Source of the DNA: Victivallales bacterium
GTDB lineage: Bacteria; Verrucomicrobiota; Lentisphaeria; Victivallales; GWF2-38-69
Assembly (NCBI GenBank): GCA_021733985.1
Contig: JAIPJT010000002.1
Coordinates: 50,468 to 114,467, forward strand
Direction: 5' to 3'
DNA: 64,000 nt
A model generated the notes under the pieces. The model did no database searches. It was not told where the DNA came from and saw only the letters and a program-made list of their open reading frames with translations. The first letter of the stretch is position 1; the number at the start of each line of letters is the position of its first letter. The position numbers were made by a program, and so were the translations under genes. Positions 26,775 to 51,147 of the stretch are shown here, one piece after another.

Positions 26775-27848
26775 TTAATTTTTTCTGATAACTAAATAAC
26801 GGCTGAGTTCTAACAATAGTTTTTTGTAATTGCTGTCGGGGAAATCGGAGAGACAATTTTCAGCCTGTTGATGAAGAGTTTTTATTTGTTCGAGTGTAAT
26901 TTTTTCAGCGCCGGATTTTCTAACAAGATTTTTTATAATTTCCATATCTTCAACTGAAATTTTCTCTCTTCCAAGATAGGAACTAAGCAGTTCTCTTTCG
27001 GCTGACTCCAGTTTTTCAAGTGCCATGAGCATAAGGGTTGTTGGTTTTGACGCTTTGATGTCACTGCCGACTGACTTTCCTAATTTATCAGTATCGGAAA
27101 AAATACCAAGCCAATCATCTTTCAACTGGAAGGCTATGCCCAGTGATGAGGCAAAACCTGAAAGTTTTTTTATTCGGTGATCAGAATTATCAGCTGTATT
27201 TAAGGCTATTTTAGCTCCTGCTTTAACGCAGAAAGTAAGCAGAGCACCGGTTTTAAGGTAAATCATTTCTTTAACTTCCTCCGGCGTCACGTTGTTAATT
27301 GTTCTGTAGGACATTTCTACATCTATTGCTTCTCCACTGATAAGTTCTCTGGAAACTGTTTCCGCAAGGTCTCTGCATAATGACAAAGTTACATCAGGTG
27401 ATACACCATTTTCTGTTGATTTCAACAAAAGAGTTAAAGCCCAGGACTGTTGGAGATCGCCTGCTAAAAGTGCAAAATCAACACCAAACTTTTTTGATCC
27501 TGAAGTGTCAAGGGAAAAGGTTTCCGCGGCATAATTTTTCAGGTTAATATGAGTAGAAGGATTACCGCGTCTTAAATCATCATTGTCAATGATATCATCA
27601 TGTACGAGGGTCCAGTTATGATATATCTCAGCCGCTGCAGCAGCATAATATGCCATTTCAATGTTGCCGTTAAGTAAACCGCAGCACCATAAAACCAATG
27701 CCGGGCGAAGCCTTTTTCCCGGGTTTGACGGATATTGCAAAACTGCTTCCCTCAATTGTAACGGAGAAATTTTTGTAGGGTAATCATCAGTTTGTATTAT
27801 TGCATCAATTCCATCTGATACTTTTTTTAACTCATTAAACAGTAACAT
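26775..27848 (-). CDS. Polyprenyl diphosphate synthase (trans-prenyltransferase)
   Basis: 357 aa, isoprenoid chain elongation from IPP and an allylic diphosphate. First Asp motif in LVHDDIIDNDDLRRG; second in FQLKDDWLGIFSD, where the usual DDxxD is DDWLG, a form seen in some short-chain synthases. The LRPALVLWCC segment matches the GKRLRP motif (PGKRLRP). The product length cannot be judged from this. It overlaps rex by one base and so is read with it, which would tie isoprenoid (perhaps quinone) supply to redox state. Confidence 0.85.
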   Translation of the reverse strand: MLLFNELKKVSDGIDAIIQTDDYPTKISPLQLREAVLQYPSNPGKRLRPALVLWCCGLLNGNIEMAYYAAAAAEIYHNWTLVHDDIIDNDDLRRGNPSTHINLKNYAAETFSLDTSGSKKFGVDFALLAGDLQQSWALTLLLKSTENGVSPDVTLSLCRDLAETVSRELISGEAIDVEMSYRTINNVTPEEVKEMIYLKTGALLTFCVKAGAKIALNTADNSDHRIKKLSGFASSLGIAFQLKDDWLGIFSDTDKLGKSVGSDIKASKPTTLMLMALEKLESAERELLSSYLGREKISVEDMEIIKNLVRKSGAEKITLEQIKTLHQQAENCLSDFPDSNYKKLLLELSRYLVIRKN

Positions 27849-28495
27849 TATTTTCCTAATCTGGAATATTCATTTGCAAAATAAGCAACTTTTTCTATTT
27901 CCATTGTTATATCTATTCGCTCGACAAAAACATTATTAGGTACTCTTAATGTAGCGGGAGCAAAATTTAAAATACCTGTAACCCCTGCGCTGACGAGTTT
28001 ATCAGTAACTTTCTGGGCATATACTGACGGTACTGTGATAATTCCGAGCGTAATTCCTAATTCCTTTACCTTTGTTTTCATCTCAGATAATGGATAACAC
28101 TTGCAGCTTGCTATTACTTTACCTATTTTCTCTTCATCAATATCAAAAGCTGCTGCTACAGACGGGGTCGAGCGCTGATAATTAGAATAAGAAAGGATCG
28201 CTTTTCCTAAGTCGCCTACTCCTACCAGGGCTATCTGCCCGGCTTTGTCATTATCGAGTATTGAGTTTATGCTGTTTAAAAGGTAGTCTATACCGTAGCC
28301 CTGTTTTGGGTTCCCTCCTGAACAGCCTATAATCATTAAATCACGCCTGACCTGGGCAGGAGTGTTATTGGCTAATTCTGCTAACTGGTGTGAGTATATA
28401 TGACTTAATCTGTTGGATTTTAATTCAAGTAACTGGCGTCTGTAAATAGCCAGGCGCTCAATCGTTCTTGCAGGTATTTTTTCCTCTCTTTTCAT
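27848..28495 (-). CDS. rex: Redox-sensing transcriptional repressor Rex
   Basis: 215 aa. N-terminal winged helix (RTIERLAIYRRQLLEL, NTPAQVRRDLMIIG), Rossmann domain with GVGDLGKA and a C-terminal swap helix. Rex leaves its DNA site when NADH rises and controls fermentation, hydrogenase and respiratory genes. An inverted repeat resembling a Rex site lies upstream at 28519-28540, pointing to autoregulation. Its presence beside two NAD(H)-linked hydrogenases fits the role. Confidence 0.95.
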   Translation of the reverse strand: MKREEKIPARTIERLAIYRRQLLELKSNRLSHIYSHQLAELANNTPAQVRRDLMIIGCSGGNPKQGYGIDYLLNSINSILDNDKAGQIALVGVGDLGKAILSYSNYQRSTPSVAAAFDIDEEKIGKVIASCKCYPLSEMKTKVKELGITLGIITVPSVYAQKVTDKLVSAGVTGILNFAPATLRVPNNVFVERIDITMEIEKVAYFANEYSRLGK

Positions 28496-32643: not shown

Positions 32644-33897
32644 TTAGAAGCTCAATTTCCAGGGGGCAAGAGTGCGTTCGAGGATCTCTTTTCCGTGGAT
32701 ATAGGAGAGAAAGATACCGTAATTGGTGTAAGGTATATTCAGTGAGTCTAAATCGCGCAGTCTGGCGCAGAGTTTCTGACGGGTTATCATACAGCCGCCA
32801 CAATGAATTATCAGCTTATATTCTAACAATTTTTTATTTTCCTGGAATTCCCTTCCGAAATTGTGTTCTATAACCGTTCCCGGGTAGTGTTTGTTAATAT
32901 AAGCGGGAATTTGTACAGTGCCGATATCCTCTTTTATTCGGGTATGGTTACATGCTTCGACAATTAAAATTTTATCTCCTTTTTTTATGTGGTCAAGTTG
33001 TTTTATTCCGGCAGCAAATTCTGCCAATTTTCCATTAGTGATATAATTGATCATCATAATGGAAAAAGTAGTAATCTGAATATCTGAAGGTGCCCAGTCT
33101 TTCATAATATCCATTGCCTGTGAATCTGTGATAATAACTTTAGGACGTTTTGAGAAACTGTTCAGGAAATTATCAAAATTCGCTTTTTCCGAGTTATCGA
33201 CGTTTCGGGCTCTTGAAAGCAGCATTCTGTAAGCGACAGGGTATGCCCGGTGACGGGTAATATATTCAACTGCCATCTGCTGAGGACGGAGAAGGCGTCC
33301 ATTGGGAGTTTCTTCATCCATGGGGATGTTAAGTATATAGAATTCACCCTTTTCCAGGAAGGGGAGCAGTTCAGTGTCTGTTTTTGATAAAGTATAGTTT
33401 TTAATTATAAAATCCAGCAGTTTCTGTCTGTTTGAAGATTTAATTGTCGATATTGCGAGTTTTTTATAGAATTTTAAAAGACTGAGTTCAATTTCTATTT
33501 TTTTAATTTTTTCATTATCTGCTTCCGGTTTAAAAAGGTTATATATAATTAGGAGCTGTTTATCAAGTTCCCTTGCATTCTCAATAATAGTTTGTTCTGT
33601 CTTAAAATCGTTGGTATTAATGTCTATAATTAACAGAACAAGATCACACTCCTTCAGAACGGACTGTACTTTTTTTTTCTTTTTTTCTCCGAGAATATTT
33701 CTTTCATCGAACCCTGCTGTATCAAACAATTTTACAGGACCGAGTCCATGTATTTCCTGGAGGGTGATTTTAGTATCTGCTGTTGTGCCGGGAGTATTAT
33801 CAACAATAGAAGTTTCCTGCTGTGTAAGCAAATTCATTACACAGCTTTTACCTGCATTCATTTTTCCGAATATACCAATATGCTCTCTGTTTATCAT
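32644..33897 (-). CDS. hydF: [FeFe] hydrogenase maturation GTPase
   Basis: 417 aa. HydF is the scaffold on which the 2Fe subcluster is assembled before transfer to HydA. GTPase domain with P-loop GKMNAGKS (11-18), PGTT and DTAGFDE; a middle dimer domain; C-terminal cluster-binding CxH ... HCxxC seen in EACNHTRI and IIHCGGCM. Overlaps hydE by 4 bases. Last gene of the hydCBA-hydG-hydE-hydF cluster. Confidence 0.95.
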   Translation of the reverse strand: MINREHIGIFGKMNAGKSCVMNLLTQQETSIVDNTPGTTADTKITLQEIHGLGPVKLFDTAGFDERNILGEKKKKKVQSVLKECDLVLLIIDINTNDFKTEQTIIENARELDKQLLIIYNLFKPEADNEKIKKIEIELSLLKFYKKLAISTIKSSNRQKLLDFIIKNYTLSKTDTELLPFLEKGEFYILNIPMDEETPNGRLLRPQQMAVEYITRHRAYPVAYRMLLSRARNVDNSEKANFDNFLNSFSKRPKVIITDSQAMDIMKDWAPSDIQITTFSIMMINYITNGKLAEFAAGIKQLDHIKKGDKILIVEACNHTRIKEDIGTVQIPAYINKHYPGTVIEHNFGREFQENKKLLEYKLIIHCGGCMITRQKLCARLRDLDSLNIPYTNYGIFLSYIHGKEILERTLAPWKLSF

Positions 33898-35042
33898 TTT
33901 ACTCCATACTGTCTTTGTTTTTTTGTGTAATGTACGGCATCACCGAACACCCCAAAGGCGAGTTCAGAACCGATTTTTTTAATTCGTTTGTTTAAATCTG
34001 ACTGGAAAGATAGTATATCGGATTCAAAACAGGGTTTATTATCATACAGTATATATGATTTTTTATATTTATGATCGTTAATATTTATCATAATTACGTT
34101 TGCACCTGCGAGTACTCCCTGTTCAAGACCTTTAGGGCTGAGTGCTTCCAGTGCTGTTGTAGCAGCGATATTAATATCCGGTAGATAGATTTTTGTGGCG
34201 GCTATCATTTTCAACCCCATAAGGAGTGATTTCTTTCTTGCCTTGTCATCAAAAGTACTGTAAAGATCTTTTCCCATCGGGGTGTCTCTATGAGGTATAT
34301 AAGGTCCCATGCCTATCATATCGACATCGATATCTTTATAAAATTTTATATCTTTAGCAAGGTCTGCTACTGTTTGGCCGGGGAAACCTATGAGAACGCC
34401 GGTACCTAACTGATAACCTGTCTTCTTTAATATTTTAAGGCAGTTTTTTCTGTCTTCAAAGCTTGAGGATTCAGGGTGTATTTCTGCATAAAGTTTCGGG
34501 TTGGAAGTTTCTATTCTGAGCAGATAGCGCCTTGCGCCGGCTTCATACCATTTCCGGTATGTCTCTTCTGTCTGTTCACCAAGCGAAAGAGTAATTCTTA
34601 GATTGCCTTTTGTAAGTTTTCGTGTTTCATGCAGGATATCCGTAACATAGTCTACAAATTTTTTATCCTTACGTTCTCCAGCCTGAATTACTACTGAAGC
34701 GTAATTATTTCTGTAAGCAAAATTTATGCAGTCAACAACTTCTTTCCTGCTTAAAAAATAACGCCTGTATTTTTTGTTGCTTTTTCTTATACCGCAGTAG
34801 TAGCAGTCTTCTGTGCATATATTGCTCAGTTCTATCAGTCCGCGTAAAAAAACCTTATTGCCGGTGGACTGTTTTTTTTTAAGGTATGCTTTTTCAAAAA
34901 GAAGTTTCTGAGCTCTTTCGTCTTCAAGAGAAAGAAGATGTTCCAAATCTTTAACAGAAAGCTTTTCCGCATTATTTATTTTTTTAATAATTGTTTCAAA
35001 CATTGTTGTATTATCGGGAAGTTTGTTATTGATTTTCTGCAT
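33894..35042 (-). CDS. hydE: [FeFe] hydrogenase H-cluster maturation radical SAM protein
   Basis: 382 aa radical SAM enzyme required to build the dithiomethylamine-bridged diiron site. CxxxCxxC cluster motif in ISNICTEDCYYCGIRKSNKK. Followed by the TIM-barrel motifs VIQAGE (GGE-like) and GVLIGFPGQT. Length is normal. Downstream of hydG by 57 bases, 4-base overlap into hydF. Confidence 0.94.
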   Translation of the reverse strand: MQKINNKLPDNTTMFETIIKKINNAEKLSVKDLEHLLSLEDERAQKLLFEKAYLKKKQSTGNKVFLRGLIELSNICTEDCYYCGIRKSNKKYRRYFLSRKEVVDCINFAYRNNYASVVIQAGERKDKKFVDYVTDILHETRKLTKGNLRITLSLGEQTEETYRKWYEAGARRYLLRIETSNPKLYAEIHPESSSFEDRKNCLKILKKTGYQLGTGVLIGFPGQTVADLAKDIKFYKDIDVDMIGMGPYIPHRDTPMGKDLYSTFDDKARKKSLLMGLKMIAATKIYLPDINIAATTALEALSPKGLEQGVLAGANVIMININDHKYKKSYILYDNKPCFESDILSFQSDLNKRIKKIGSELAFGVFGDAVHYTKKQRQYGVK

Positions 35043-35099: not shown

Positions 35100-36518
35100 T
35101 TAAAAATATAAATCGCGTTTACCTTTGTTTTCTATTTTTTCGAGCCTGGAGACCAGTTCGTTTTTGATCTTTTCATCGGAAAATTTTGACAGTTCTCTAT
35201 TAATAAGCGCATCGCCAAGATTTATGGTTGCCGGAGAAGCATAATCCATCAGGTACTCTTTCAAGGTTAACAGGGCGTTGGGAGTGCAGTATTTTTCAAT
35301 GAAACCGGGTATTGCGAATTCCATGAAACGTTCTCCTGTCCTGCCTAGTCGGTAGCAGGCTGTGCAGAAACTCGGGAGGTAGCCGTTATCAATAAGTTCA
35401 TAGATAATTTCGTCTATAGGACGCATGTCGCCTAGAGAGAACTGCTCTTTAAGTTTTCTCTCATCAAGCTTTGTATTTGAATATCCTCCAAGTTCGATTC
35501 TGGAGCCCGCATCAATTTGCGATACTCCAAATCCCAATAATTCCCGTCTGATATCAGGATTCTCCCTTGCTGTTAGTATCATTCCGGTATAAGGAACAGC
35601 CAGACGCAAAATAGCTACCAGACGTTTAAAATCATAGTCATTTACAAAGTATTTTTCATCTATTAATGTATTATGGACAGATTTTATTCGCGGGAAGCTT
35701 ATTGTATGTGGGCCCACACCGAATTTTTCCTGTAGAAAGAGAGAATGTTGTACCATTGCAAGGACTTCAAATTTCCAGTCGTAAAGACCGAAAAGTGCTC
35801 CGATTCCGACATCATCGCAACCCGCTTCAAATGCTCTGCTTAAACCATCAAGACGGTACAGATAATCATTTTTACAGGTATTTTCGGGATGTACTTTTTT
35901 ATAGGTTCCATGATGGTATGTTTCCTGAAAAATTTGATAAGTCCCTATTCCTGCTTCCTTAACAGTTTTGTAGTCATTAGTATCAAGTGGTGCTGCGTTA
36001 ATATTTACTCTTCTAATTTCACCGTTGCCATGTTTAACAGAATAAACCTTTTTAACTGTATCTGCGATAAATTCAGGCGAATACTTAGGGTGTTCGCCGA
36101 AAACTAATATTAAACGTTTATGGCCGCTATCTTCAAGTGCCCTAACTTCTGAAATAATTTCCTCCTGAGAAAGAGTTTTTCTCACAGTCGTCCTTAGGCT
36201 TTTGCGGAAACCGCAATATTTGCAGTCGTTAGTGCAGTAATTGCCAATATAGAGGGGGGCAAATATAACAATTCTGTTGCCGTATACAGATCTTTTCAGT
36301 TCACGGGCGGCTTCAAAAATTTCTTCTACCAATTCCGGGCTTTCGGCGGAAAGCAGCATAGCGGTTTCTTTAACCGAAAGAGGTTTTTTAGCCATGCTTT
36401 TAGTTATGATATCCCTGACCTTATACTTGTCTTCCCCGGTATCGTTGATTAAGTCTGTAATATAATCGTCATTTATAAAATCTTCGCATACACTTGAGCG
36501 GTCTTTATAAGTTTTCAT
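35100..36518 (-). CDS. hydG: [FeFe] hydrogenase maturation radical SAM tyrosine lyase
   Basis: 472 aa. HydG splits tyrosine to give CO and CN ligands of the H cluster. Radical SAM motif CTNDCKYCGFRKS, and the C-terminal auxiliary cluster CTACYRLGRTGERFMEFAIP with its third Cys in KYCTPNALLTL. ATG at 36518 is used; an in-frame TTG three codons upstream (36527) is an alternative. It follows the REC-kinase gene, so maturation and signalling genes share one unit. Confidence 0.95.
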   Translation of the reverse strand: MKTYKDRSSVCEDFINDDYITDLINDTGEDKYKVRDIITKSMAKKPLSVKETAMLLSAESPELVEEIFEAARELKRSVYGNRIVIFAPLYIGNYCTNDCKYCGFRKSLRTTVRKTLSQEEIISEVRALEDSGHKRLILVFGEHPKYSPEFIADTVKKVYSVKHGNGEIRRVNINAAPLDTNDYKTVKEAGIGTYQIFQETYHHGTYKKVHPENTCKNDYLYRLDGLSRAFEAGCDDVGIGALFGLYDWKFEVLAMVQHSLFLQEKFGVGPHTISFPRIKSVHNTLIDEKYFVNDYDFKRLVAILRLAVPYTGMILTARENPDIRRELLGFGVSQIDAGSRIELGGYSNTKLDERKLKEQFSLGDMRPIDEIIYELIDNGYLPSFCTACYRLGRTGERFMEFAIPGFIEKYCTPNALLTLKEYLMDYASPATINLGDALINRELSKFSDEKIKNELVSRLEKIENKGKRDLYF

Positions 36519-36547
36519 CTTTTCCAATCCGTAAAGGTTTATCTGTT

Positions 36548-37699
36548 CTATGCACTTTCAGCAGGGGGCGAAGCAGCAGGAAGACTTTTTAATGTTACAA
36601 AAAAAGTAGTTCCTGTTCCGAACTCACTTTTTACTTTTATAGTTCCTTTATATAGTGAAATAAGTTTTTTAAGGATTGATAATCCCAGTCCGCTCCCTTC
36701 AATATTTGCGGTCTTCTCATTTTTAAATCTGACGAATTCGCCGAAAAGACGCTTTTGCTCTTCCGGTTTCATGCCGATCCCGCCATCTTCCACGGTGATA
36801 TATATACTGTCTTCTTCCTGTTCTATTTTTATATTTACATAACCATTTTCTTTATTGTATTTAACGGCATTTGAAATCAGGTTGTTGAACATTATTTCAA
36901 GCTCACTGAGTTCACCGTTCATTAATATTTTTTCCTGAGCATCGAGGTTTATACTTATATTTCTTTCATCTGCTTTCAGTTTATTTGTTTCTATGGAACG
37001 TTCGACTGCTTCAATGAGGTTAATCTGCTTTATCTTTCTTATTTTTTGTCCCGACTCAATTCGAGTGAGGTCAAGAAGGTCAAAAATAAGCTTGCGCATG
37101 CCGTTAATTCTTTCCATTGAGCGCTTAATCATATTGTCATAGCTTTTTATATCATTTCCAGCTACCCTGTCATCGATTACTCGCAAATAGCCGTCAATTG
37201 CGTTTAGAGGAGCTTTCAGCTCGTGAGACAAAACAGAAAGGAACTGAAATCTGACTTTTTTCTTGTCCTCTTCCAGTTTTTTTGCTTTGCGATGAAGAAC
37301 AATATTAGTAGAAGCTTTTTTTACTACTTTTCTGAGTTCTTCAGGGGTAAAGGGCTTAGCCAGGAAATCAAAAGCCCCGCTTTTAGTGGCGCTTATAGCT
37401 ACTTCCAATGAGGCGAACGCAGTCATCATAACTGTATGGGCATCGTACTTCATTTTTTTTAGCCTGTCCAGAATCTCAAGCCCGCTTATATCGTCAAGTT
37501 TATAGTCAAGCAGTATTATGTCAAACTGGGTTTTACTTAATAAATCCAAAGCCTCATTGCCTGTTGTAGCCTGACTTATTTCAAATTCAACAGTGTCATT
37601 AAAATCTCTCAATTCAAATTTATATTTACGAAGAGCCCGGAACGCGCCTCTGCGCATCCCCGGTTCATCGTCTACAACTAAGAGCTTTAAAATTAGCAT
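36548..37699 (-). CDS. Receiver-histidine kinase hybrid (REC-HisKA-HATPase)
   Basis: 383 aa, no membrane segment. REC domain residues 1-130 with acidic VVDDEPG, phospho-acceptor D65 in ILLDYKLDD and FLAKPF; then HisKA with H159 in LSHELKAPLNA, N box LISNAVKYNKENG, EDGGIGM and GSGLGLSILK. A receiver in front of a kinase fits a phosphorelay step. It sits between the REC-only gene and hydG in the [FeFe] hydrogenase cluster, so it may relay a hydrogen or redox signal. No DNA-binding output domain is present. Confidence 0.88.
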   Translation of the reverse strand: MLILKLLVVDDEPGMRRGAFRALRKYKFELRDFNDTVEFEISQATTGNEALDLLSKTQFDIILLDYKLDDISGLEILDRLKKMKYDAHTVMMTAFASLEVAISATKSGAFDFLAKPFTPEELRKVVKKASTNIVLHRKAKKLEEDKKKVRFQFLSVLSHELKAPLNAIDGYLRVIDDRVAGNDIKSYDNMIKRSMERINGMRKLIFDLLDLTRIESGQKIRKIKQINLIEAVERSIETNKLKADERNISINLDAQEKILMNGELSELEIMFNNLISNAVKYNKENGYVNIKIEQEEDSIYITVEDGGIGMKPEEQKRLFGEFVRFKNEKTANIEGSGLGLSILKKLISLYKGTIKVKSEFGTGTTFFVTLKSLPAASPPAESA

Positions 37700-37704
37700 T
37701 TAAT

Positions 37705-38112
37705 TTATCCTAATAATTTATTTATTTCATTATAAAGCTGTTCGTTTCTAATATCTTTATCAAGAATTACATCAGCTTTAATCCATGAACGCATTTCATC
37801 TGTTGATACATCAAAGTGATAGCCTGTTTCGTTTGTCACATTTGTAACTATTATTACCGGGATTTTCGGGTTTGTTTTTTTTAACTTGTAGCTGAGTACA
37901 AAACCGCTGTCACTGTTTTCCATCATAAGGTCAAACACGGCAAGATCAAAATCGGTTTCCTGTATTAGCTTCTCGCCCTCAGCCTGTGAACCTCCAACAA
38001 CAACTTCAAAGCCATAGCTTTTCAGATAGAACGAAATAAGTTCCTGATAATCGAAATCATCATCAACGACCAAAGCTGTTTTCCCAAAATATCTTTTTTC
38101 CTGTTCTGACAT
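37705..38112 (-). CDS. Single-domain response regulator
   Basis: 135 aa receiver only. LVVDDDFDYQE acidic pair, DLAVFDLMMENSDSGF phospho-acceptor, VIIVTNVTNETG, with an insertion before the expected Lys (LDKDI). No output domain, so it may shuttle phosphate between the sensor kinase upstream (38145-40163) and the REC-kinase downstream. Confidence 0.85.
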   Translation of the reverse strand: MSEQEKRYFGKTALVVDDDFDYQELISFYLKSYGFEVVVGGSQAEGEKLIQETDFDLAVFDLMMENSDSGFVLSYKLKKTNPKIPVIIVTNVTNETGYHFDVSTDEMRSWIKADVILDKDIRNEQLYNEINKLLG

Positions 38113-38144
38113 TATTTTCTCCTCTTTTATTCAATTTTAATAGT

Positions 38145-40163
38145 TTAATTTTTTCTTGGCAAAGAAATAGTAAATTCTGTCCAGGTGGGGCCCTTTTCAG
38201 GTTCCGCATTGGTTTTTACTGTAATATTGCCTTTATGTGTTTTTATAATACCGTAAGAAACGGCCAGGCCCAAACCGGTGCCCTTTCCAATCTGCTTAGT
38301 GGTAAAGAGCGGTTCAAAAATTTTATTAATGTATTTTTGCTGAATGCCGCTGCCTTCGTCCTTTATTTTTACATAAATTTTATCTTCATTATCATAGGCC
38401 TGAATATTAATAGTGCCTTTTTCCTGCATTGCGTCAATAGCATTCACAATCAGGTTTACAAGAACCTGAGTAATTTTATCTCCGTGTACTTCCGCAATCG
38501 GGTCATTAAAATTAGAGTCAATTATAATATTGACCTCTTCAGGTTTTATGATTGTCTTAAGAGAATTTTTGATTAACTTATCAATGTTAGTAAGTTCAAT
38601 GTCAAGTGTGTTTTTCCTGGAAAAATTTAGCAGTCCTGAAACAATTTTTTTACATCTTTTAGCCTGTTCCACTATCAAATCAATGTCTTCTTTATACTCT
38701 TCGAGTTCCGGAGTCTCTGAAATCTCTTCCAGCAAACCGGAGGCATTAAGCAGAATGACACCAAGCGGATTATTTATTTCATGGGCAATACCTGCAGAAA
38801 GCTGACCCATGCTGGCAAGCTTTTCCGCATTGAAAAGAGCTTCCTGAGTTTTTTCCAGGCTGGTTTTCGATATTTTAAGATCTTCAAGTGAATTTTTAAG
38901 ACGTTCTATTGTATAGGGAAGGCACATTTCATTTTCAGCAAGACCTGCGTATATTGCCTGCGCATGTTCACGGCAGGTTTCATATCCGCATGCCCCGCAA
39001 TTCAGCTCGTCTTCAATTGTATATTTACCGAGTTTTTCCAGAATAGTTACTATTTTTTTGTTAGGTGGCTCTGTGAACCTTATGTCCGAAGCACGGAAGA
39101 TAGCTTTCATATCCAGTTCCTGATTCAGTAAACCGTGAAACATATCCCTGTTTATATGTAAATCAGAATATTCAAAACGGGATTTAACGTAGTTACTTAC
39201 AGCTGTACGGCGTGCGAAATATGATTGTTTTTCTTCAGAAGGCATGCCTGCGCCCATGATACATCCCTGACAGCATAAAACTTCAAGCAGTTTAGAGTCA
39301 AACTTTTTATTATGATATTCATCTAATGCTCTGACAAAGTCCTCTTTCCCGTCTGCCGTAAGAATATGTGAATTCAGCAGGTTTACTCTCATGTCAGCTG
39401 CCTGAAGCATCCCGCCGCGAAGCGGGAACAGTGCTCCGAGCCCGGGTTTCGGGGGGTCAAAATCCCGGGGAGTAAGTTTTTCACCGTCAATTTCTTCAGC
39501 TTCAAACATTTCAATAAGTTCCTGAAATGTAAGAACGCTTGCAATTTCAGTGGAGCCGTCTTCTGTAGGATACTTCAGAGCTTCTGCCTTTTTGGATATA
39601 CACGGTCCGATAAAAACGGTTTTTATATCGCCGTATATAATTCTCAGGGCCCTTGAAGTAGCTATCATCGGCGACACTATCGGTGCAAGATAGCTGAAAA
39701 GGATAGGGTGATATTTCTCAACAAATGATACAATTCCCGGGCAGGTAGTTGCAATATATGATTTGTCCGGATTATTAAAAACCAGTTCTTTATAGGCATG
39801 GGCTACAAAATCTGCACCGAAAGCGACTTCGCAAACATGATCAAAGCCTAATTCTTTAATCATGCTTACCAGGCGTCCGGCATTTATTCCCTGAAAAGCA
39901 GCCGGAAAACTCGGTGCAACTATTGCAATAGTTTTTATGTCTGATTTCAGAATATCATTTGTTTCATCAATGGACCCGTAATATTTTTTTGCTTTCTGGC
40001 TGCAGACAAGTACACAATGTCCGCAGCCTATGCAGCGTTCGGGTATGACTTCTGCCTGTCCATTGGATACACGTATAGCTTTAGCAGGACAGCTTCGTAT
40101 ACACGTATAGCACATCCTGCATCTTTCCTTAATAGTAGTAACTAATGTTATATTATTATCCAC
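38145..40163 (-). CDS. [FeFe]-hydrogenase-like sensor histidine kinase
   Basis: 672 aa from a GTG start. Two [4Fe-4S] ferredoxin motifs (CRMCYTCIRSCP and CIGCGHCVLVC, residues 15-54). Hydrogenase H-domain (75-350): L1 is changed to IATTCPG (C141), L2 is FIGPCISKK (C188) and L3 is EVLCCQGCIMGAG (C297-C301). FeS domain CGACGYETC with C414 (389-414). Then HisKA with H461 in AGIAHEINNPLG and HATPase with GTGLGLAVSYG. It lies between hydA and the two receiver genes. It is like the putative sensory hydrogenases (HydS) that control bifurcating hydrogenases, but with a fused kinase. I infer H2 or redox sensing, not bulk catalysis. Confidence 0.88.
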   Translation of the reverse strand: MDNNITLVTTIKERCRMCYTCIRSCPAKAIRVSNGQAEVIPERCIGCGHCVLVCSQKAKKYYGSIDETNDILKSDIKTIAIVAPSFPAAFQGINAGRLVSMIKELGFDHVCEVAFGADFVAHAYKELVFNNPDKSYIATTCPGIVSFVEKYHPILFSYLAPIVSPMIATSRALRIIYGDIKTVFIGPCISKKAEALKYPTEDGSTEIASVLTFQELIEMFEAEEIDGEKLTPRDFDPPKPGLGALFPLRGGMLQAADMRVNLLNSHILTADGKEDFVRALDEYHNKKFDSKLLEVLCCQGCIMGAGMPSEEKQSYFARRTAVSNYVKSRFEYSDLHINRDMFHGLLNQELDMKAIFRASDIRFTEPPNKKIVTILEKLGKYTIEDELNCGACGYETCREHAQAIYAGLAENEMCLPYTIERLKNSLEDLKISKTSLEKTQEALFNAEKLASMGQLSAGIAHEINNPLGVILLNASGLLEEISETPELEEYKEDIDLIVEQAKRCKKIVSGLLNFSRKNTLDIELTNIDKLIKNSLKTIIKPEEVNIIIDSNFNDPIAEVHGDKITQVLVNLIVNAIDAMQEKGTINIQAYDNEDKIYVKIKDEGSGIQQKYINKIFEPLFTTKQIGKGTGLGLAVSYGIIKTHKGNITVKTNAEPEKGPTWTEFTISLPRKN

Positions 40164-40207: not shown

Positions 40208-41932
40208 TTAAATGAGAACATCTCTTTTAGTATAATTTGTATGAAGAAGTTCATGACTTTTATGACTTAAAGGCTCCCCGAGAAATTCTTTGTATAACTG
40301 CTGAACAGCTTTATTTTTATGAGAGGTTCTCAGTTTTTCACTTTTGTCAATCGAATATAGAGATTTAAGTCTAACCTTTATTTTTTCAATGTCTGTATTC
40401 CTGGGCTGTCCCCCGCCTGCAATACATCCGCCGGGGCATGTCATTACTTCGATGAAATGTAGATCCTTTCTACCTGATTTTATCTGTTCAAGCAGCTGTT
40501 GTGCATTACCTACACCGTTTACTACTGCTATGCCGAGTTCCAGACCGTTAATATTCAGTTTGGCTTCCTTTATGCCTTTTACCCCTCTTACTTCTTCAAT
40601 CTGTAAAGATTTTAACTCACTGCCGGTAAGCATGTGATATGCTGTGCGAACGGCAGCTTCCATTACACCGCCTGTTCCTCCGAAGAGTTTCCCGGCAGAA
40701 CTTCTTATGCCAAAAGGAGTGTCTGCTTTGTCTTCAGGCAGAGAACCAAAATCTATTCCGTATGTTTTTATCATCCTGGCTAACTCTCTGGTGGAAATAG
40801 TTGCATCGATATCCGGGACCTGGTCTCTTCCCATTCCCGGTCTTGCAGCCTCAAATTTTTTAGCAGTACAGGGCATAACAGAAACACTGAATATATTTTC
40901 AGGATCGATTCCTTCTTTTTTCGCAAAATATGTTTTAATTATTGCGCCCAGCATCTGCTGAGGGCTTTTACAGGTTGAAATATTTTCCAGAAATCCAGGA
41001 TAAAACTGTTCAACATATTTAATCCAGCCTGGAGAGCAGCTTGTCATCAACGGGAGTTTTCCGCCTGACTGAATGCGCTGAATCAATTCTGATGCTTCCT
41101 CCATAATAGTCAGGTCGGCAGAAAAACTTGTGTCAAATACACGATCAAATCCCATTCTCCTTAGAGCTGTCACCATTTTGCCGTTGACATCTGTGCCCGG
41201 TTCTATACCGAATTCTTCGGCTATGGATACCGAAATAGCAGGAGCGTGCTGTACAACAACAATTTTTTTCGGGTTATTCAACGCGTCTGTGACCTGCTTT
41301 GTGAAACTGTTTTCACGCAATGCTCCGGTTGGGCAGACCATAATGCATTGGCCGCAATATATACAGCTGGATATATTGAGTCCCTGATTGAAAGCCGGAG
41401 CTATAACAGTGCTGCTGCCTCTGCCTACAAAGTCAATTGCAGAAACATTTTGAATTTCCTCACAGACTCTTACACATTTTCCGCATAGAATACATTTAGA
41501 CTGGTCCCTTACAATAGCAGGACTGGTACAGTCAACTGTATTTCTGGTTTTATGTTTTCCAACAAACCTTCTTTCCCTTATACCATACTGATCAGCCAAA
41601 TTCTGAAGTTGGCAGTTGCCGTTTCTTACGCAGTATAAACAGTCATCAGGATGGTTGGCCAGCAAAAGCTCTATAACGGTTTTTCTTGCCTTTATCACAC
41701 GGGGAGAATTAGTTATAATGTTCATCCCTTCCTGTACAGGATAAGAACAGCTGGGTACCAGTCCGGGCATTCCTTCGACTTCCACGCAGCATATTCTGCA
41801 GGCGCCGCTCGGAAGAAAGTCATCCATATGACAAAGAGTGGGAATGTTTATTCCTGCACGCTTGACAGCTGACAGAATAGTCTCTTCCGGTTTGGCATCT
41901 ATAATTCTATTATTAACTGTAATTTCAAACAT
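40208..41932 (-). CDS. hydA: [FeFe] hydrogenase catalytic subunit HydA (trimeric type)
   Basis: 574 aa. The ATG at 41932 is preceded by AGAGGTG, so a GTG three codons up (41941) is less likely. Order: plant-type [2Fe-2S] domain (CHMDDFLPSGACRICC), His-ligated [4Fe-4S] (HPDDCLYCVRNGNC), two [4Fe-4S] (CILCGKCVRVCEE and CIYCGQCIMVCP), then the H domain with L1 TSCSPGW, L2 VMPCTAKK, L3 EVMTCPGGCIAGGG. These L1-L3 forms are those of the trimeric HydABC hydrogenases that couple NADH and ferredoxin oxidation to H2. A C-terminal small-subunit-like tail is present. HydC and HydB lie upstream. Confidence 0.95.
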   Translation of the reverse strand: MFEITVNNRIIDAKPEETILSAVKRAGINIPTLCHMDDFLPSGACRICCVEVEGMPGLVPSCSYPVQEGMNIITNSPRVIKARKTVIELLLANHPDDCLYCVRNGNCQLQNLADQYGIRERRFVGKHKTRNTVDCTSPAIVRDQSKCILCGKCVRVCEEIQNVSAIDFVGRGSSTVIAPAFNQGLNISSCIYCGQCIMVCPTGALRENSFTKQVTDALNNPKKIVVVQHAPAISVSIAEEFGIEPGTDVNGKMVTALRRMGFDRVFDTSFSADLTIMEEASELIQRIQSGGKLPLMTSCSPGWIKYVEQFYPGFLENISTCKSPQQMLGAIIKTYFAKKEGIDPENIFSVSVMPCTAKKFEAARPGMGRDQVPDIDATISTRELARMIKTYGIDFGSLPEDKADTPFGIRSSAGKLFGGTGGVMEAAVRTAYHMLTGSELKSLQIEEVRGVKGIKEAKLNINGLELGIAVVNGVGNAQQLLEQIKSGRKDLHFIEVMTCPGGCIAGGGQPRNTDIEKIKVRLKSLYSIDKSEKLRTSHKNKAVQQLYKEFLGEPLSHKSHELLHTNYTKRDVLI

Positions 41933-41958
41933 TTTAAACACCTCTATGATTGTAACTT

Positions 41959-43890
41959 TTAATCTATAACTATTGCATCAAACTTGCAGGTTTCTATGCA
42001 GGCTCCGCAACCGATACATAGGTCTGTGACAATATAATGAGGACTTCTTTTAGCGCCTTTTACTGCACCTGTCGGACATTTCTGGGCGCATGCGGTACAA
42101 CCTACACAGTTGGCTTCTATAATTTTGTAATTAATAAGGTCTCTGCATACTCCGGCCGGACATTTTCTTTCATATATGTGGGCTTCATATTCTTCTCTAA
42201 ACCATTTCAAAGTACTTAAAACTGGATTCGGGGCGGTTTGTCCAAGACCGCAGAGACTCGTATCCTGGATGACTTTTGCGAGCCTTTCAAGATACATCAA
42301 ACCTTTGAAACGCTGAAGGGCCTGAGTCGGTGATTCGTCTTTTCTGCCGTGGGTAATATCTTCAAGAATGCCAAGCATATGGCGAGTGCCTTCACGGCAT
42401 GGAATACATTTACCGCAGCTTTCTCTTTGTATAAAGTCCATAAAAAATTTTGCAAGGTCAACCATGCAGGTGCTTTCATCCATTACAACCAATCCGCCGG
42501 AGCCCATCATGGCACCTACGTTTTTCAGTGATTCATAATCTATTTCAATGTCGACGAACTCGGTAGGGATACAGCCGCCTGAAGGGCCTCCGATTTGAAC
42601 AGCCTTATAATTTTTATCATTCGGGATTCCGCCTCCGATTTCAAAAACTATCTCACTTAGTTTTGTGCCCATAGCAACCTCAACGAGACCGGTCCTGTTG
42701 ATCCTGCCTGAAAGTGCAAATACTTTAGTGCCTTTACTGGATTTAGTTCCAATTGAATTAAAAGCAGCACTTCCCGAGTCAATAATTCCGGGAACGTTTG
42801 CATAGGTTTCGACGTTGTTTATTACGGAAGGTTTGCCGAATAAACCTTTTACAGCCGGAAACGGCGGACGGGGACGCGGCATTCCGCGTTTACCTTCAAT
42901 ACTGTGTATAAGGGCAGTTTCTTCGCCGCAGACAAAAGCACCGGCGCCTTTTTTGATAATTATGTCAAGGCTGAAATCGGTATTCATGATGTTACTTCCG
43001 AGAAGACCGTATTCCTTAGCCTGTCTGATTGCTGTTTCAAGTCTTGATATTGCGAGAGGATATTCAGCGCGAATATATATATATGCTTTTGTTGCGCCTA
43101 TGGCATATGCGCCAATCGCCAGTCCTTCAAGCAGTCGATGAGGGTCACCTTCTATTACCGCTCTGTCCATAAAGGCTCCCGGGTCACCTTCATCTGCATT
43201 ACATATCATATATTTCTGGGAACTTTCGGTATTTAAAGCAAATTTCCATTTTCTCCCAGTGAGGAAACCGCCGCCGCCTCTCCCGCGAAGACCGCTTTCT
43301 TCAATAATATTACAGACTTCAGGAGTTTTATATTTATATTCTCTGAGAACTTTTGTAAATGCTCTGTATCCGCCAAAAGCAATATATTCATCGATATTTG
43401 TTGGATCTATAATTCCGCAGTTTTTCAACACTAACCTGGTTTGTCTTTGGAAAAAGGGATGTTCATCAAGGTAAGCTAACCCTTCCCATCCTTCAAAATT
43501 ACTGTTTCTGTGCTGTCCCATAAAATTTTCCGTCTTGATTTCATGTCCCAAGACAGCTTCTATAATATCAACTGCATTTGATTCTGTTACATTTTTAAAT
43601 GTAAGCCTTGTTCTGCCCGGAATCTGTACGTCCATAATAGGCTCTTCCGCGCAAAGTCCGATACAGCCTACTTTTACCAGGTTAATATCTTTGTTTTTGA
43701 TGTATTCTTCCAGTTTTGTTAATACTTTATTCGCCCCGGCACTTAATCCGCATGTCGCTGTACCAAGGAAAACGGTAGGAAGTTTTATTTTGCTTCTTGT
43801 ATTAGATAAAATATAATCTTTTATATAACTGTCATTTATATTTTTTTCATCTTTTTGTGACAGGATATTCTTCAGTATTTCCTTGTTCAT
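41959..43890 (-). CDS. hydB: NADH-binding subunit HydB of the [FeFe] hydrogenase
   Basis: 643 aa NuoF-like flavoprotein. N-terminal thioredoxin-like [2Fe-2S] domain (ATCGLSAGA ... GCIGLCAEEP), FMN/NADH fold with GLRGRGGGGFLTG, NADEGDPGAF, FVCGEETALI, the [4Fe-4S] ESCGKCIPCREG, and two C-terminal ferredoxin [4Fe-4S] sets (CVGCTACAQKCP, CIGCGACIETC). This C-terminal ferredoxin extension distinguishes hydrogenase HydB from NuoF. Bifurcating enzymes use this subunit for NAD and ferredoxin. Tight spacing with hydC (13 bases) and hydA (26). Confidence 0.95.
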   Translation of the reverse strand: MNKEILKNILSQKDEKNINDSYIKDYILSNTRSKIKLPTVFLGTATCGLSAGANKVLTKLEEYIKNKDINLVKVGCIGLCAEEPIMDVQIPGRTRLTFKNVTESNAVDIIEAVLGHEIKTENFMGQHRNSNFEGWEGLAYLDEHPFFQRQTRLVLKNCGIIDPTNIDEYIAFGGYRAFTKVLREYKYKTPEVCNIIEESGLRGRGGGGFLTGRKWKFALNTESSQKYMICNADEGDPGAFMDRAVIEGDPHRLLEGLAIGAYAIGATKAYIYIRAEYPLAISRLETAIRQAKEYGLLGSNIMNTDFSLDIIIKKGAGAFVCGEETALIHSIEGKRGMPRPRPPFPAVKGLFGKPSVINNVETYANVPGIIDSGSAAFNSIGTKSSKGTKVFALSGRINRTGLVEVAMGTKLSEIVFEIGGGIPNDKNYKAVQIGGPSGGCIPTEFVDIEIDYESLKNVGAMMGSGGLVVMDESTCMVDLAKFFMDFIQRESCGKCIPCREGTRHMLGILEDITHGRKDESPTQALQRFKGLMYLERLAKVIQDTSLCGLGQTAPNPVLSTLKWFREEYEAHIYERKCPAGVCRDLINYKIIEANCVGCTACAQKCPTGAVKGAKRSPHYIVTDLCIGCGACIETCKFDAIVID

Positions 43891-43903: not shown

Positions 43904-44380
43904 CTATTCTTCTAAAGTTTTTCTGTTTTTATATGATCCTATAATTTTTTCTATATCTGAAGGGACCAGGTTAGCATGAAATTCACCGTTTATGCTTATC
44001 ACCGGAGCAAGCCCGCAGGCGCCGATACAGGCTACAACCTCAATACTGAACATGCCGTCTCTTGTTGTCTCTCCGGCTTTGATATTCAGCATTGCCTCTA
44101 AAGCCGAAAGTACATTCGCTGAACCTTTTACATGACATGCTGTCCCACGGCAGACCTGAATATGATACTTCCCGTAAGGTTGGAATCTAAACTGGTTATA
44201 AAAGGTGGCGACACCGTATATTTTACTGGTCGGCAGGTTTAAAAGTCCGCCGACTCTGGCAACAGAATCCTTAGATAGGAATCCAAGTTCATGTTGTATT
44301 TCCTGCAGTAAAGGTATTAAGGAATCTCTTTTCGATCCCCGGTATTTACTGAAAATCTTTTTATATATATGCTCTTCCAT
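43904..44380 (-). CDS. hydC: NuoE-like subunit HydC of the [FeFe] hydrogenase
   Basis: 158 aa thioredoxin-like [2Fe-2S] protein, with CRGTACHVKGSANV and ACIGACGLAP supplying the four Cys. It is the first gene of the hyd cluster. Preceded by a candidate operator dyad at 44441-44464. NuoE of complex I is the closest family, but the absence of other nuo genes and the HydBA partners make hydC the better call. Confidence 0.92.
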   Translation of the reverse strand: MEEHIYKKIFSKYRGSKRDSLIPLLQEIQHELGFLSKDSVARVGGLLNLPTSKIYGVATFYNQFRFQPYGKYHIQVCRGTACHVKGSANVLSALEAMLNIKAGETTRDGMFSIEVVACIGACGLAPVISINGEFHANLVPSDIEKIIGSYKNRKTLEE

Positions 44381-44754: not shown

Positions 44755-45126
44755 TTATAACTTGTTTTTTATCGTGTTCAGAAGAGTTTGAGGATTAATG
44801 GGTTTCTGGAAAATACCGTTTAAACCGAGTTCCGTATAATTGACTGTGTCATTTAAGTTATCACCAATGGAGCTTAACATGTATACAGGCACATTGTCTG
44901 ATAAAAGCCTTACTTCCTTTACAAAATTTACTCCGGCATCTACTTCTTCCATCATCAAATCCACTATAGTGAGATCGGGACTGCATTGTTTAAATTTTTT
45001 TATACCTTCTTCCGCCGAGGAGGCTTCTTCCATAATATATCCGTTCTGTTCAAGAATAAATTTTAAAGAATTGCGTACATCCTGATCATCGTCTACACAG
45101 AGGATTACATATTTATTGTCTCTCAT
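44755..45126 (-). CDS. Single-domain response regulator at the end of the hox cluster
   Basis: 123 aa receiver: CVDDDQDVRNS, phospho-acceptor in LTIVDLMMEE, MLSSIG and FQKPINP with the conserved Lys. No output domain. Follows the hydrogenase protease by 35 bases in the same direction, so it is probably co-transcribed with hoxFUYH. Partner kinase unknown; the hyd-cluster kinases 10 kb further on are candidates. Confidence 0.85.
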   Translation of the reverse strand: MRDNKYVILCVDDDQDVRNSLKFILEQNGYIMEEASSAEEGIKKFKQCSPDLTIVDLMMEEVDAGVNFVKEVRLLSDNVPVYMLSSIGDNLNDTVNYTELGLNGIFQKPINPQTLLNTIKNKL

Positions 45127-50234: not shown

Positions 50235-50296
50235 TTACATCGTCCCTTCTGTATTCTTTGTTAATAGTTTAAAAATCACTATTTTAGATTTTATTT

Positions 50297-50358: not shown

Positions 50359-50778
50359 TTACTTTAAATTTATTCCGGTTGTTCCCATAATTAATCCGGA
50401 ATGAAGCACCCCCTTCTGCTGCTTCAGCTTGTCTGATAGATGTTTTACTTCTTTCGGGTTTCCTTTTACCATTATCATTTCAGCACAGATTTCATGCGTT
50501 AAATGTACATGAGTTGAGGCAAGGACAATATTATGGCTGGAATGCTGTAGATCAGTAAGTTTTTCACTGAGTTCTCTGCGTTTATGATCATATATAAGTG
50601 TTATAGTTCCGACAGTTTCATCCTGATTATCACGCCATTCCTCTGCTACAATCTGGTCTCTTATCATATCCCTTATAAATTCCGATCTGTTTGCATAACC
50701 GCTTTCCCTGACCATTTTGTCAAGTTTATTAAACAAGCTGTCTTCTATTGAAAAACTTAATCTTGTGAGGCTCGGCAT
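50359..50778 (-). CDS. nikR: Nickel-responsive regulator NikR
   Basis: 139 aa from ATG 50778, which has an AGGGAAAG site; the open frame extends 43 codons further but with no NikR similarity. Ribbon-helix-helix N-terminus (RLSFSIEDSLFNKLDKMVRE) and ACT-like Ni-binding domain with H79, H90, H92 and C98, the four standard ligands offset by three from E. coli NikR. It represses Ni uptake when Ni is sufficient. A matching operator lies before the NiCoT gene at 29676-29702. It precedes hoxF. Confidence 0.95.
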   Translation of the reverse strand: MPSLTRLSFSIEDSLFNKLDKMVRESGYANRSEFIRDMIRDQIVAEEWRDNQDETVGTITLIYDHKRRELSEKLTDLQHSSHNIVLASTHVHLTHEICAEMIMVKGNPKEVKHLSDKLKQQKGVLHSGLIMGTTGINLK

Positions 50779-51147
50779 TATACTTTCCCTTAATATCACG
50801 CTTCTATATTGTATATGCTTATATAATCGGTATTTATCAGTTAGTAAATTTATATCGTTTAATTGAAATGAAAAACCGAAAACCGAAAAAAATAAAAAAA
50901 AATCCAATTAAATTTGAATACACATTTATCTTTATTTCTGAGTTTTTTTTTAGGTTTAAGCGTCCATATAAACTGCTGATGATACTTTTCCGCAGCAGCA
51001 TTTAATTATAATTAACCACATAAAATACAGTTTTTAAAATTTACATGCAGCATATTCGGTTTTTTATTCAGAAAAAATAATTTAAATATGTTGATAATTG
51101 GAAAATTATGGCATATAATGGAAACAAATGGAATAAGGAAATGTTTT

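What the first reader, a model, noticed from the sequence alone, without database searches (positions are those of the whole stretch)
36548..40163. Candidate H2-sensing phosphorelay within the [FeFe] hydrogenase cluster
A hydrogenase-like protein with fused kinase (H461), a receiver-only protein and a receiver-kinase are packed between hydA and hydG. The H-domain keeps Cys in L1, L2 and L3 but L1 is shortened to TTCPG. This is consistent with sensory hydrogenases (HydS) that are poor catalysts. The architecture gives the full path signal-kinase-receiver-kinase but no DNA-binding protein, so the output regulator must lie elsewhere.
Basis: partly seen in the sequence, partly recalled or inferred. 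Interest (0 to 1): 0.75.

Follow-up and report, generated by a model that had tools for sequence, protein, structure and literature searches.

The report
Hydrogen-sensor kinase cassette beside hydrogenase genes
A bacterial operon for a hydrogen-handling enzyme also encodes a hydrogen-sensor-like protein fused to a signalling kinase, a small receiver protein and a second kinase, a set kept together in many distant bacteria but with no obvious gene switch at its end.

Summary
The trio is real: HydS-like sensor–histidine kinase (38145-40163), receiver-only protein (37705-38112) and receiver–kinase (36548-37699), gaps of 5-44 nt, between hydA and hydG. The H-domain groups with sensory HydS proteins, not HydA. 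L1 is not shortened: Thr140 replaces CpI Cys299. The one-residue deletion is in L3 (Cx3C to Cx2C). The C-terminal Cx2Cx4Cx16C motif runs straight into the kinase helix, without a PAS domain.

Comparison: in 387 genomes of the window's phylum 16 have this HydS–kinase; the receiver–kinase is its neighbour in 15 of 15 assessable loci. In 395 Bacteroidota-group genomes 25 have it, and 25 of 25 carry the whole trio. No DNA-binding protein belongs to the trio in either group. In the window's genome all six DNA-binding response regulators sit beside their own kinases. Rex, with Rex-like operators, heads the operon in relatives.

A sensor HydS fused to a kinase beside a bifurcating hydrogenase is already in print (Hydrogenedentota, 2024); the receiver plus second kinase I did not find described. 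Most likely an H2/redox-responsive two-kinase cassette adjusting hydrogenase; topology and output are inferred. A related receiver (44755-45126) ends the [NiFe] hox operon.

The parts
38145..40163 (-). HydS-like [FeFe]-hydrogenase sensor fused to a histidine kinase (672 aa); H461 codon 38781-38783
   Evidence: Pfam; alignments of 5 and 40 homologues; tree; model mean pLDDT 86.0
39249..39935 (-). H-domain, residues 77-305: L1 A-T-T140-C141-P, L2 G186-P-C188-x-x-K, L3 L296-C-C298-Q-G-C301 (one residue shorter than CpI)
38916..39005 (-). C-terminal Fe-S motif Cx2Cx4Cx16C, residues 387-416 (C389, C392, C397, C414), running straight into the helix of the kinase
   Evidence: Pfam PF04060; invariant in 40 of 40; helix 415-483 in the model
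38151..38810 (-). HisKA + HATPase_c kinase core, residues 452-671, motif H461-E-I-N-N-P
37705..38112 (-). REC1, receiver-only protein (135 aa), phospho-Asp D61 in DLMMENSDSGF; altered alpha-4 region
   Evidence: Pfam; D17-D19, D61, T90, K119 invariant in 31 aligned; model
36548..37699 (-). REC-HK, receiver-histidine kinase (383 aa), D65 and H159, motif H-E-L-K-A-P
   Evidence: Pfam; D65, T93, K115, H159 invariant in 19 aligned
40208..41941 (-). hydA, group A6 catalytic subunit
   Evidence: NCBIfam over cut-off
41959..43890 (-). hydB (NuoF-like, FMN and Fe-S)
   Evidence: Pfam
43904..44380 (-). hydC (NuoE-like)
   Evidence: Pfam
35100..36527 (-). hydG maturase
   Evidence: NCBIfam over cut-off
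33894..35042 (-). hydE maturase
   Evidence: NCBIfam over cut-off
32644..33897 (-). hydF maturase
   Evidence: NCBIfam over cut-off
44755..45126 (-). receiver-only protein at the end of the hox [NiFe] operon (DLMMEEVDAGV); possible further member of the system
   Evidence: Pfam; motif; same position after hoxYHW in relative G002
27848..28495 (-). Rex-family regulator; heads the hyd operon in relatives, lies apart here
   Evidence: Pfam

Best explanation
A conserved H2/redox-responsive two-kinase cassette of the bifurcating hydrogenase operon. A sensory-type [FeFe] H-domain (poor proton transfer, so not a bulk catalyst) reads H2 or redox poise. Electrons or a conformational change reach the C-terminal [4Fe-4S] cluster, whose last ligand C414 is at the first turn of the helix that leads to His461, and so set the kinase/phosphatase balance of HydS-HK. 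HydS-HK exchanges phosphoryl groups with the receiver of REC-HK (D65) and, where present, with the single-domain REC1 (D61). REC-HK acts as a second, receiver-gated kinase. Output: adjustment of the hydrogenase(s), through the single-domain receivers acting on partner proteins and/or through a regulator encoded elsewhere; Rex regulates transcription of the operon in parallel in relatives. Shown by sequence: the domains, the intact phospho-sites and ligands, the sensory-type active site, the conserved gene association. Inferred: H2 as signal, direction of phosphoryl flow, output.
For: Domains. H-domain groups with HydS-PAS and HydS-MCP and apart from 20 of 20 group-A HydA rows; HydA 99*, sensor set 98*. 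C299->T140 (A/P/S/T across the family), M353->G186, M497->L296; ligand cysteines and L2 lysine invariant. Cx2Cx4Cx16C as in Tm and Tam HydS (motif read in PMC8163306). One helix 415-483 from C414 through H461. REC-HK next to HydS-HK in 15 of 15 assessable loci of the phylum and 25 of 25 in the Bacteroidota group, including 6 phylum loci with no hydA nearby. REC1 present in 8 of 8 phylum loci with hydA adjacent and in 25 of 25 Bacteroidota-group loci. No receiver gene at 13 of 13 other HydABC loci or at 5 of 5 HydS-PAS loci; the same scan found the receivers in 9 of 9 control loci. HydA in 16 of 16 and the HydG maturase in 15 of 16 HydS-HK genomes.
Against: No experiment. One HydS-HK genome (G358) shows no HydG, so a [2Fe] subcluster is not assured there (incomplete assemblies possible). 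L3 is one residue short, which could alter or weaken H-cluster binding; related Bacillota-group sensors share it. REC1 is missing in one family, so it is not an obligatory relay step. Nothing in the sequences fixes the direction of phosphotransfer or the output.
Confidence: 0.68

Rival explanations
1. Ordinary transcriptional two-component output: HydS-HK (and REC-HK) phosphorylate a sigma-54 (NtrC-type) or other DNA-binding response regulator encoded elsewhere, which controls hyd and hox genes.
For: In the Bacillota group the same sensor is wired to sigma-54: HydS-kinase beside a REC-sigma54-Fis regulator in 4 loci and beside a REC-LuxR regulator in 1, and HydS fused directly to a sigma-54 activator domain in 12 of the 20 loci I fetched (4 checked by Pfam; the other 8 by the sequence after the Fe-S motif). 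The fused domain is 60-63% identical to those regulators. The window's genome has 4 NtrC-type regulators, and all 16 HydS-HK genomes hold sigma-54 activator domains.
Against: All 6 DNA-binding response regulators of the genome lie beside their own histidine kinase. None belongs to the cassette in the 15 phylum and 25 Bacteroidota-group loci. No -24/-12-like site with 2 or fewer mismatches in the 380 nt before hydC. The nearest own regulator is 39-43% identical to the Bacillota-group ones (48% in the sigma-54 part), which need not exceed ordinary family resemblance.
Confidence: 0.3
2. The H-domain no longer works as a hydrogenase-type H2 sensor but senses redox state, CO, O2 or Fe-S supply through its Fe-S clusters, with the kinase relay as described.
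For: L3 lost one residue and the proton-path residues are changed. HydG not found in 1 of 16 HydS-HK genomes. Three Fe-S motifs besides the H-cluster could sense redox alone.
Against: The four H-cluster ligand cysteines and the L2 lysine (K191) are invariant in 40 of 40; maturases in 15 of 16 genomes; the cassette usually sits in the hydrogenase operon. TmHydS and TamHydS, with similar replacements, still bind the cluster and turn over H2 (passages of PMC8163306 and PMC10055695).
Confidence: 0.2
3. HydS-HK is mainly a regulatory or accessory subunit of the HydABC complex; the kinase parts serve an unrelated input.
For: Gene beside hydA in 28 of 40 assessable loci (8 of 15 in the phylum, 20 of 25 in the Bacteroidota group).
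Against: In 6 of 6 assessable loci of one family the HydS-HK + REC-HK pair stands alone, away from hydABC. The kinase core is intact and conserved.
Confidence: 0.07

Closest known systems
BfuT of sub-type V BfuABC clusters (group C3 HydS with a histidine kinase domain; Hydrogenedentota, Calditrichota, some Bacteroidota; PMC11406978, section 7 part 1 and passages read)
   Same: Sensory-type [FeFe] hydrogenase fused to a histidine kinase, next to the genes of a bifurcating hydrogenase.
   Different: The text I read does not mention the receiver-only protein or the receiver-kinase, the L3 deletion or the single-domain receiver at other hydrogenases; its figures and supplements were not seen.
[FeFe] hydrogenase group C1, 'histidine kinase-linked (putative)' of HydDB (PMC5037454, passages read)
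   Same: Putative H2 sensor linked to histidine kinases.
   Different: C1 and C3 could not be told apart here; no HydDB classifier was at hand. The Hydrogenedentota paper says H-cluster motifs were hardly found in their C1 proteins, whereas they are intact here.
[quoted passage not shown] passages read)
   Same: N-terminal 4Fe-4S clusters, H-domain without C299/M353/M497, C-terminal Cx2Cx4Cx16C cluster, gene near a bifurcating hydrogenase.
   Different: TmHydS ends in PAS and TamHydS has no PAS; here the cluster is joined directly to a HisKA kinase.
Multi-step phosphorelays with a single-domain receiver (Spo0F-like; recalled)
   Same: A kinase, a free receiver and a second kinase.
   Different: No HPt protein and no known terminal regulator; the free receiver is dispensable and the fixed pair is kinase + receiver-kinase.

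Membership tests
Sensory [FeFe] hydrogenase (HydS; groups C/D) | N-terminal [4Fe-4S] motifs plus H-domain with ligand cysteines in L1-L3 | tested here: met
Sensory [FeFe] hydrogenase (HydS; groups C/D) | Cys299, Met353 and Met497 (CpI) replaced | tested here: met
   T140, G186, L296
Sensory [FeFe] hydrogenase (HydS; groups C/D) | C-terminal Cx2Cx4Cx16C cluster motif | tested here: met
   C389, C392, C397, C414
Sensory [FeFe] hydrogenase (HydS; groups C/D) | H-domain groups with sensory proteins, not HydA | tested here: met
   the tree holds HydS proteins defined here by architecture, no named TmHydS or TamHydS
Sensory [FeFe] hydrogenase (HydS; groups C/D) | Low turnover and H2-dependent signalling | not testable with these tools
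   needs matured protein
Group C as typified by TmHydS (M2f) | PAS domain after the C-terminal cluster | tested here: not met
   no PAS in Pfam; residues 415-451 lie in one helix in the model
HydDB group C1 versus C3 | assignment by the HydDB classifier | not testable with these tools
   no HydDB reference sequences at hand
BfuT sub-type V | HydS with histidine kinase domain encoded beside bfuA/hydA | tested here: met
BfuT sub-type V | sequence clusters with the published BfuT proteins | not tested
   published sequences not fetched
Multi-step phosphorelay | intact phospho-acceptor His and Asp in each member | tested here: met
   H461, D61, D65, H159 invariant
Multi-step phosphorelay | phosphotransfer between the members and a terminal regulator | not testable with these tools
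   no orphan DNA-binding regulator seen
Rex regulon | Rex operator before the operon in this genome | tested here: inconclusive
   hydC: best site 3 mismatches, matched by 119 of 1000 shuffles; hox: 1 mismatch, 2 of 1000; six rex-headed relatives: 0-9 of 1000

The most novel reading that the evidence does not exclude
The end of the pathway is not a transcription factor: the single-domain receivers are the output. The HydS-kinase / receiver-kinase pair phosphorylates hydrogenase-dedicated receivers (REC1 in the [FeFe] hyd operon, a relative at the end of the [NiFe] hox operon, another before a second NuoEF-HydA hydrogenase in the Bacteroidota group), and the phosphorylated receivers act directly on the hydrogenase complexes or their maturation. 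That would be H2 feedback on both kinds of hydrogenase at the protein level.
Probability: 0.2. Interest if true: 0.85.

Novelty: new variant of a known kind. Interest (0 to 1): 0.6.

Why it matters
How sensory [FeFe] hydrogenases pass on their signal is openly stated as unknown (PMC8163306 asks how signal transduction is achieved). This cassette supplies conserved, soluble, co-encoded partners (sensor-kinase, receiver, receiver-kinase) with intact phospho-sites, so the question can be tested in a tube: does H2 change phosphorylation of H461 and of D61/D65? The comparison also shows one sensor domain plugged into different outputs: a SpoIIE-type phosphatase neighbour, a chemotaxis domain, a histidine kinase, and directly a sigma-54 activator.

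Tried and rejected
Rejected: 'L1 is shortened'. I first took the L3 Cx2C as a mark of HydS-kinases alone; in the Bacillota group the sigma-54 fusions and HydS-kinases have it too (19 of 20 fetched loci, the exception being the PAS-type L201), so it marks a wider set, while 12 of 12 HydS-PAS and 2 of 2 HydS-MCP of the own-phylum set keep Cx3C. I first thought that each hydrogenase complex carries its own receiver; 13 of 13 further HydABC loci have none, so the claim is limited to HydS-HK-linked hyd operons, hox in 2 genomes, NuoEF-HydA2 operons (Bacteroidota group and G004) and one HydCBA locus in G335. REC-HK as kinase-only: residue H+4 is Ala or Ser in 15 of 15 in the phylum, but Thr in 12 of 25 in the Bacteroidota group, so not general; that this residue matters for phosphatase activity is recalled.

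Led nowhere: the genome-contig scan with the full protein found only kinases. A sigma-54 site before hydC: none. Asking whether some HydS-HK genomes lack NtrC-type proteins: all 16 have them, so that output cannot be excluded. Whether the phylum and Bacteroidota-group HydS-kinases form one clade: unresolved in the tree.

Limits: the receiver motif was written after looking at the receivers, so its counts (34 of 34 near, 22 of 25 far, 0 of 20 other regulators) describe and do not test. Of the 20 other receiver proteins of the genome, 11 were checked by Pfam and 9 judged by eye. The Rex and sigma-54 consensus patterns are recalled. Of 140 Bacillota-group genomes with a hit I fetched 20 loci; L198 and L203 of those could not be assigned with certainty. 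L101 was left out of neighbour counts (contig ends inside HydS). The tree used 15 phylum and 9 of 25 Bacteroidota-group HydS-kinases, 14 other HydS and 23 HydA rows (3 of them a divergent kind). Phylum names for the two outside groups follow from the record titles of L001 and L003 and general knowledge. Not-in-print statements rest on paper searches, in an open-licence library; Greening 2016 and Zheng 2014 were not held.
Full report
What is there. On the minus strand the genes hydC-hydB-hydA-HydS/kinase-receiver-receiver/kinase-hydG-hydE-hydF run from 44380 to 32644 with gaps of -4 to 57 nt. HydA is a group A6 NADH-dependent [FeFe] hydrogenase and HydG, HydE and HydF exceed their NCBIfam cut-offs. 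The 672-aa protein at 38145-40163 has N-terminal 4Fe-4S motifs, an H-domain, a C-terminal Fe-S motif, HisKA with His461 and HATPase_c; its partners are a 135-aa receiver and a 383-aa receiver-kinase.

The sensor. Alignment with C. pasteurianum CpI shows no gap in L1. The first of the two L1 cysteines, the proton-transfer Cys299 (identified by the C299A crystal row, 6gly), lies over Thr140; the ligand Cys300 is Cys141. Met353 and Met497 are Gly186 and Leu296. In L3 a residue is missing: C298-x2-C301 instead of Cx3C, in 40 of 41 HydS-kinases of the set (the exception is L105). Papers on TmHydS and TamHydS report the same three positions as altered in sensory enzymes (passages of PMC10055695 and PMC8163306). 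A maximum-likelihood tree of 61 H-domains puts 20 of 20 HydA (group A) rows on one side (99*) and all HydS-kinases, HydS-PAS and HydS-MCP rows in another set (98*); the tool warns that some long branches meet, so deep joins are to be read with care.

Coupling to the kinase. Residues 389/392/397/414 form Cx2Cx4Cx16C, the motif described for Tm and Tam HydS, here invariant in 40 of 40. In TmHydS a PAS domain follows; here none is found. The AlphaFold2 model (mean pLDDT 86.0, pTM 0.65) has one helix from 415 to 483, beginning right after the last ligand and carrying His461, with low confidence at 439-452. Foldseek finds [FeFe] hydrogenases as best matches. This suggests, without proving, that the state of the C-terminal cluster is felt directly by the dimerisation helix of the kinase.

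Conservation in the phylum. A profile of five H-parts found 16 of 387 genomes with a score of 571 bits or more, then a gap to 350 bits, where the other HydS kinds begin. In the 15 assessable loci (own included) the receiver-kinase is the neighbour in 15; the sixteenth (L101) is cut by its contig end inside the sensor gene. Eight loci have hydA beside the cassette and all eight have REC1; in L105 and L108 REC1 precedes the sensor. L098 has a more distant single receiver between the two kinases. In one family six of six assessable loci have only the pair, with no hydA near and no conserved DNA neighbours, and in all seven of its genomes no REC1 relative was found at 1e-15. HydA is present in 16 of 16 and HydG in 15 of 16 of these genomes.

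Conservation outside. In 395 genomes of the phylum of a Chitinophagaceae MAG (Bacteroidota), 25 have a full-length relative and 25 of 25 have sensor-kinase, REC1 and receiver-kinase in that order. There the second kinase has a PAS domain between receiver and HisKA (two proteins checked). Twenty of 25 have hydCBA (or, at a contig edge, hydA) directly upstream and 21 of 25 a second NuoE/NuoF-HydA set downstream, all 21 with a further single-domain receiver before it. In 398 genomes of the phylum of Pygmaiobacter (Bacillota), 140 have a hit at 1e-90; of 20 loci fetched, 12 are HydS fused to a sigma-54 activator (four checked by Pfam; eight judged from the sequence after the Fe-S motif), five are HydS-kinases beside a DNA-binding response regulator (four sigma-54, one LuxR type), and no receiver-kinase partner was seen beside HydS. 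The fused sigma-54 part is 60-63% identical to the sigma-54 regulators that stand beside HydS-kinases.

Receivers. The single-domain receivers near the sensor mostly share D-L-[MI]-M-E-x-x-D-x-G-F at the phospho-Asp, one residue longer than the usual DxxMPxxxG (that usual form is recalled): the pattern used matched 34 of 34 near ones and 22 of 25 more distant ones, against 0 of 20 other response regulators of the genome (pattern chosen after inspection). Receivers are absent from 13 of 13 other HydABC loci and 5 of 5 HydS-PAS loci by a scan that found them in 9 of 9 controls. The REC1 model (mean pLDDT 86.5) is a complete receiver fold with an irregular, low-confidence alpha-4 region at about 91-110.

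Output. The genome (95.9% complete) has 28 receiver matches. Of the proteins carrying them six have a DNA-binding domain (one PhoB-like, four NtrC-like, one NarL-like) and each lies beside a histidine kinase gene. So no orphan regulator is at hand, but cross-talk cannot be excluded. Rex heads the operon in L035, L036, L037, L107 and L108 and precedes the sensor gene in L098; all six have a Rex-like palindrome (2 or fewer mismatches; 0 to 9 of 1000 shuffles as good). In the window's own genome hydC has no significant site (119 of 1000), hox has one (2 of 1000) and rex itself none (481 of 1000); L034, whose hydC has no rex before it, has none (446 of 1000). Rex control of [FeFe] and [NiFe] hydrogenase genes and hydG is reported in Caldicellulosiruptor (passages of PMC6391272). 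I take Rex as a parallel input, not the end of this relay.

Known or new. Sensory hydrogenases linked to kinases are a named, putative class (HydDB C1, PMC5037454), and HydS with a kinase domain beside a bifurcating hydrogenase is described in Hydrogenedentota, Calditrichota and Bacteroidota (PMC11406978). I did not find the receiver and receiver-kinase partners, or HydS fused to sigma-54 activators, in the searches listed under Tried and rejected; the supplements of those papers were not read. Hence 'new variant of a known kind'.

Noticed in passing
window 30059-32479 (+): An open frame of 806 aa joins a HATPase_c kinase module (with an H-box AHQLKSP by eye) to a pyridine nucleotide-disulphide oxidoreductase and a rhodanese domain. 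The same full-length fusion is in G002 (58% identity); most other relatives found have only the oxidoreductase-rhodanese part.
   Followed up: partly
L184:7081-9360, L186:7592-9841, L193:6604-8814, L200:2013-4214: Bacillota-group proteins in which a HydS sensor with Cx2Cx4Cx16C is fused to a sigma-54 activator domain and Fis helix: candidate one-protein H2-responsive transcription activators.
   Followed up: partly
L052:6365-8869 and L053:6422-8230: HydS fused to a methyl-accepting chemotaxis domain (Pfam MCPsignal for L052; L053 judged by eye), the HydDB C2 kind.
   Followed up: no
window 40208-41941 (hydA): L1 of the catalytic HydA reads TSCSPGW: Ser stands where CpI has the second L1 cysteine, Cys300. 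The Hydrogenedentota paper notes Ser as common at this place in most group A3 sub-types.
   Followed up: no
window 50258-50275 (-): Rex-like palindrome TTTTTAAACTATTAACAA, 1 mismatch, 23 nt before the hox operon start.
   Followed up: partly
window 50359-50907 (-): NikR-like regulator by eye (not tested), just upstream of the [NiFe] hox operon.
   Followed up: no
L059:4375-7132: TPR-histidine kinase and NarL-type regulator pair next to an apparent second [NiFe]-hydrogenase-like gene set in the window's own genome.
   Followed up: no
L141, L143-L145, L147-L149, L151-L164: In 21 of 25 Bacteroidota-group loci a second NuoE/NuoF-HydA hydrogenase follows the cassette, after a receiver with a DVMMDEPDDGF-like motif.
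   Followed up: partly
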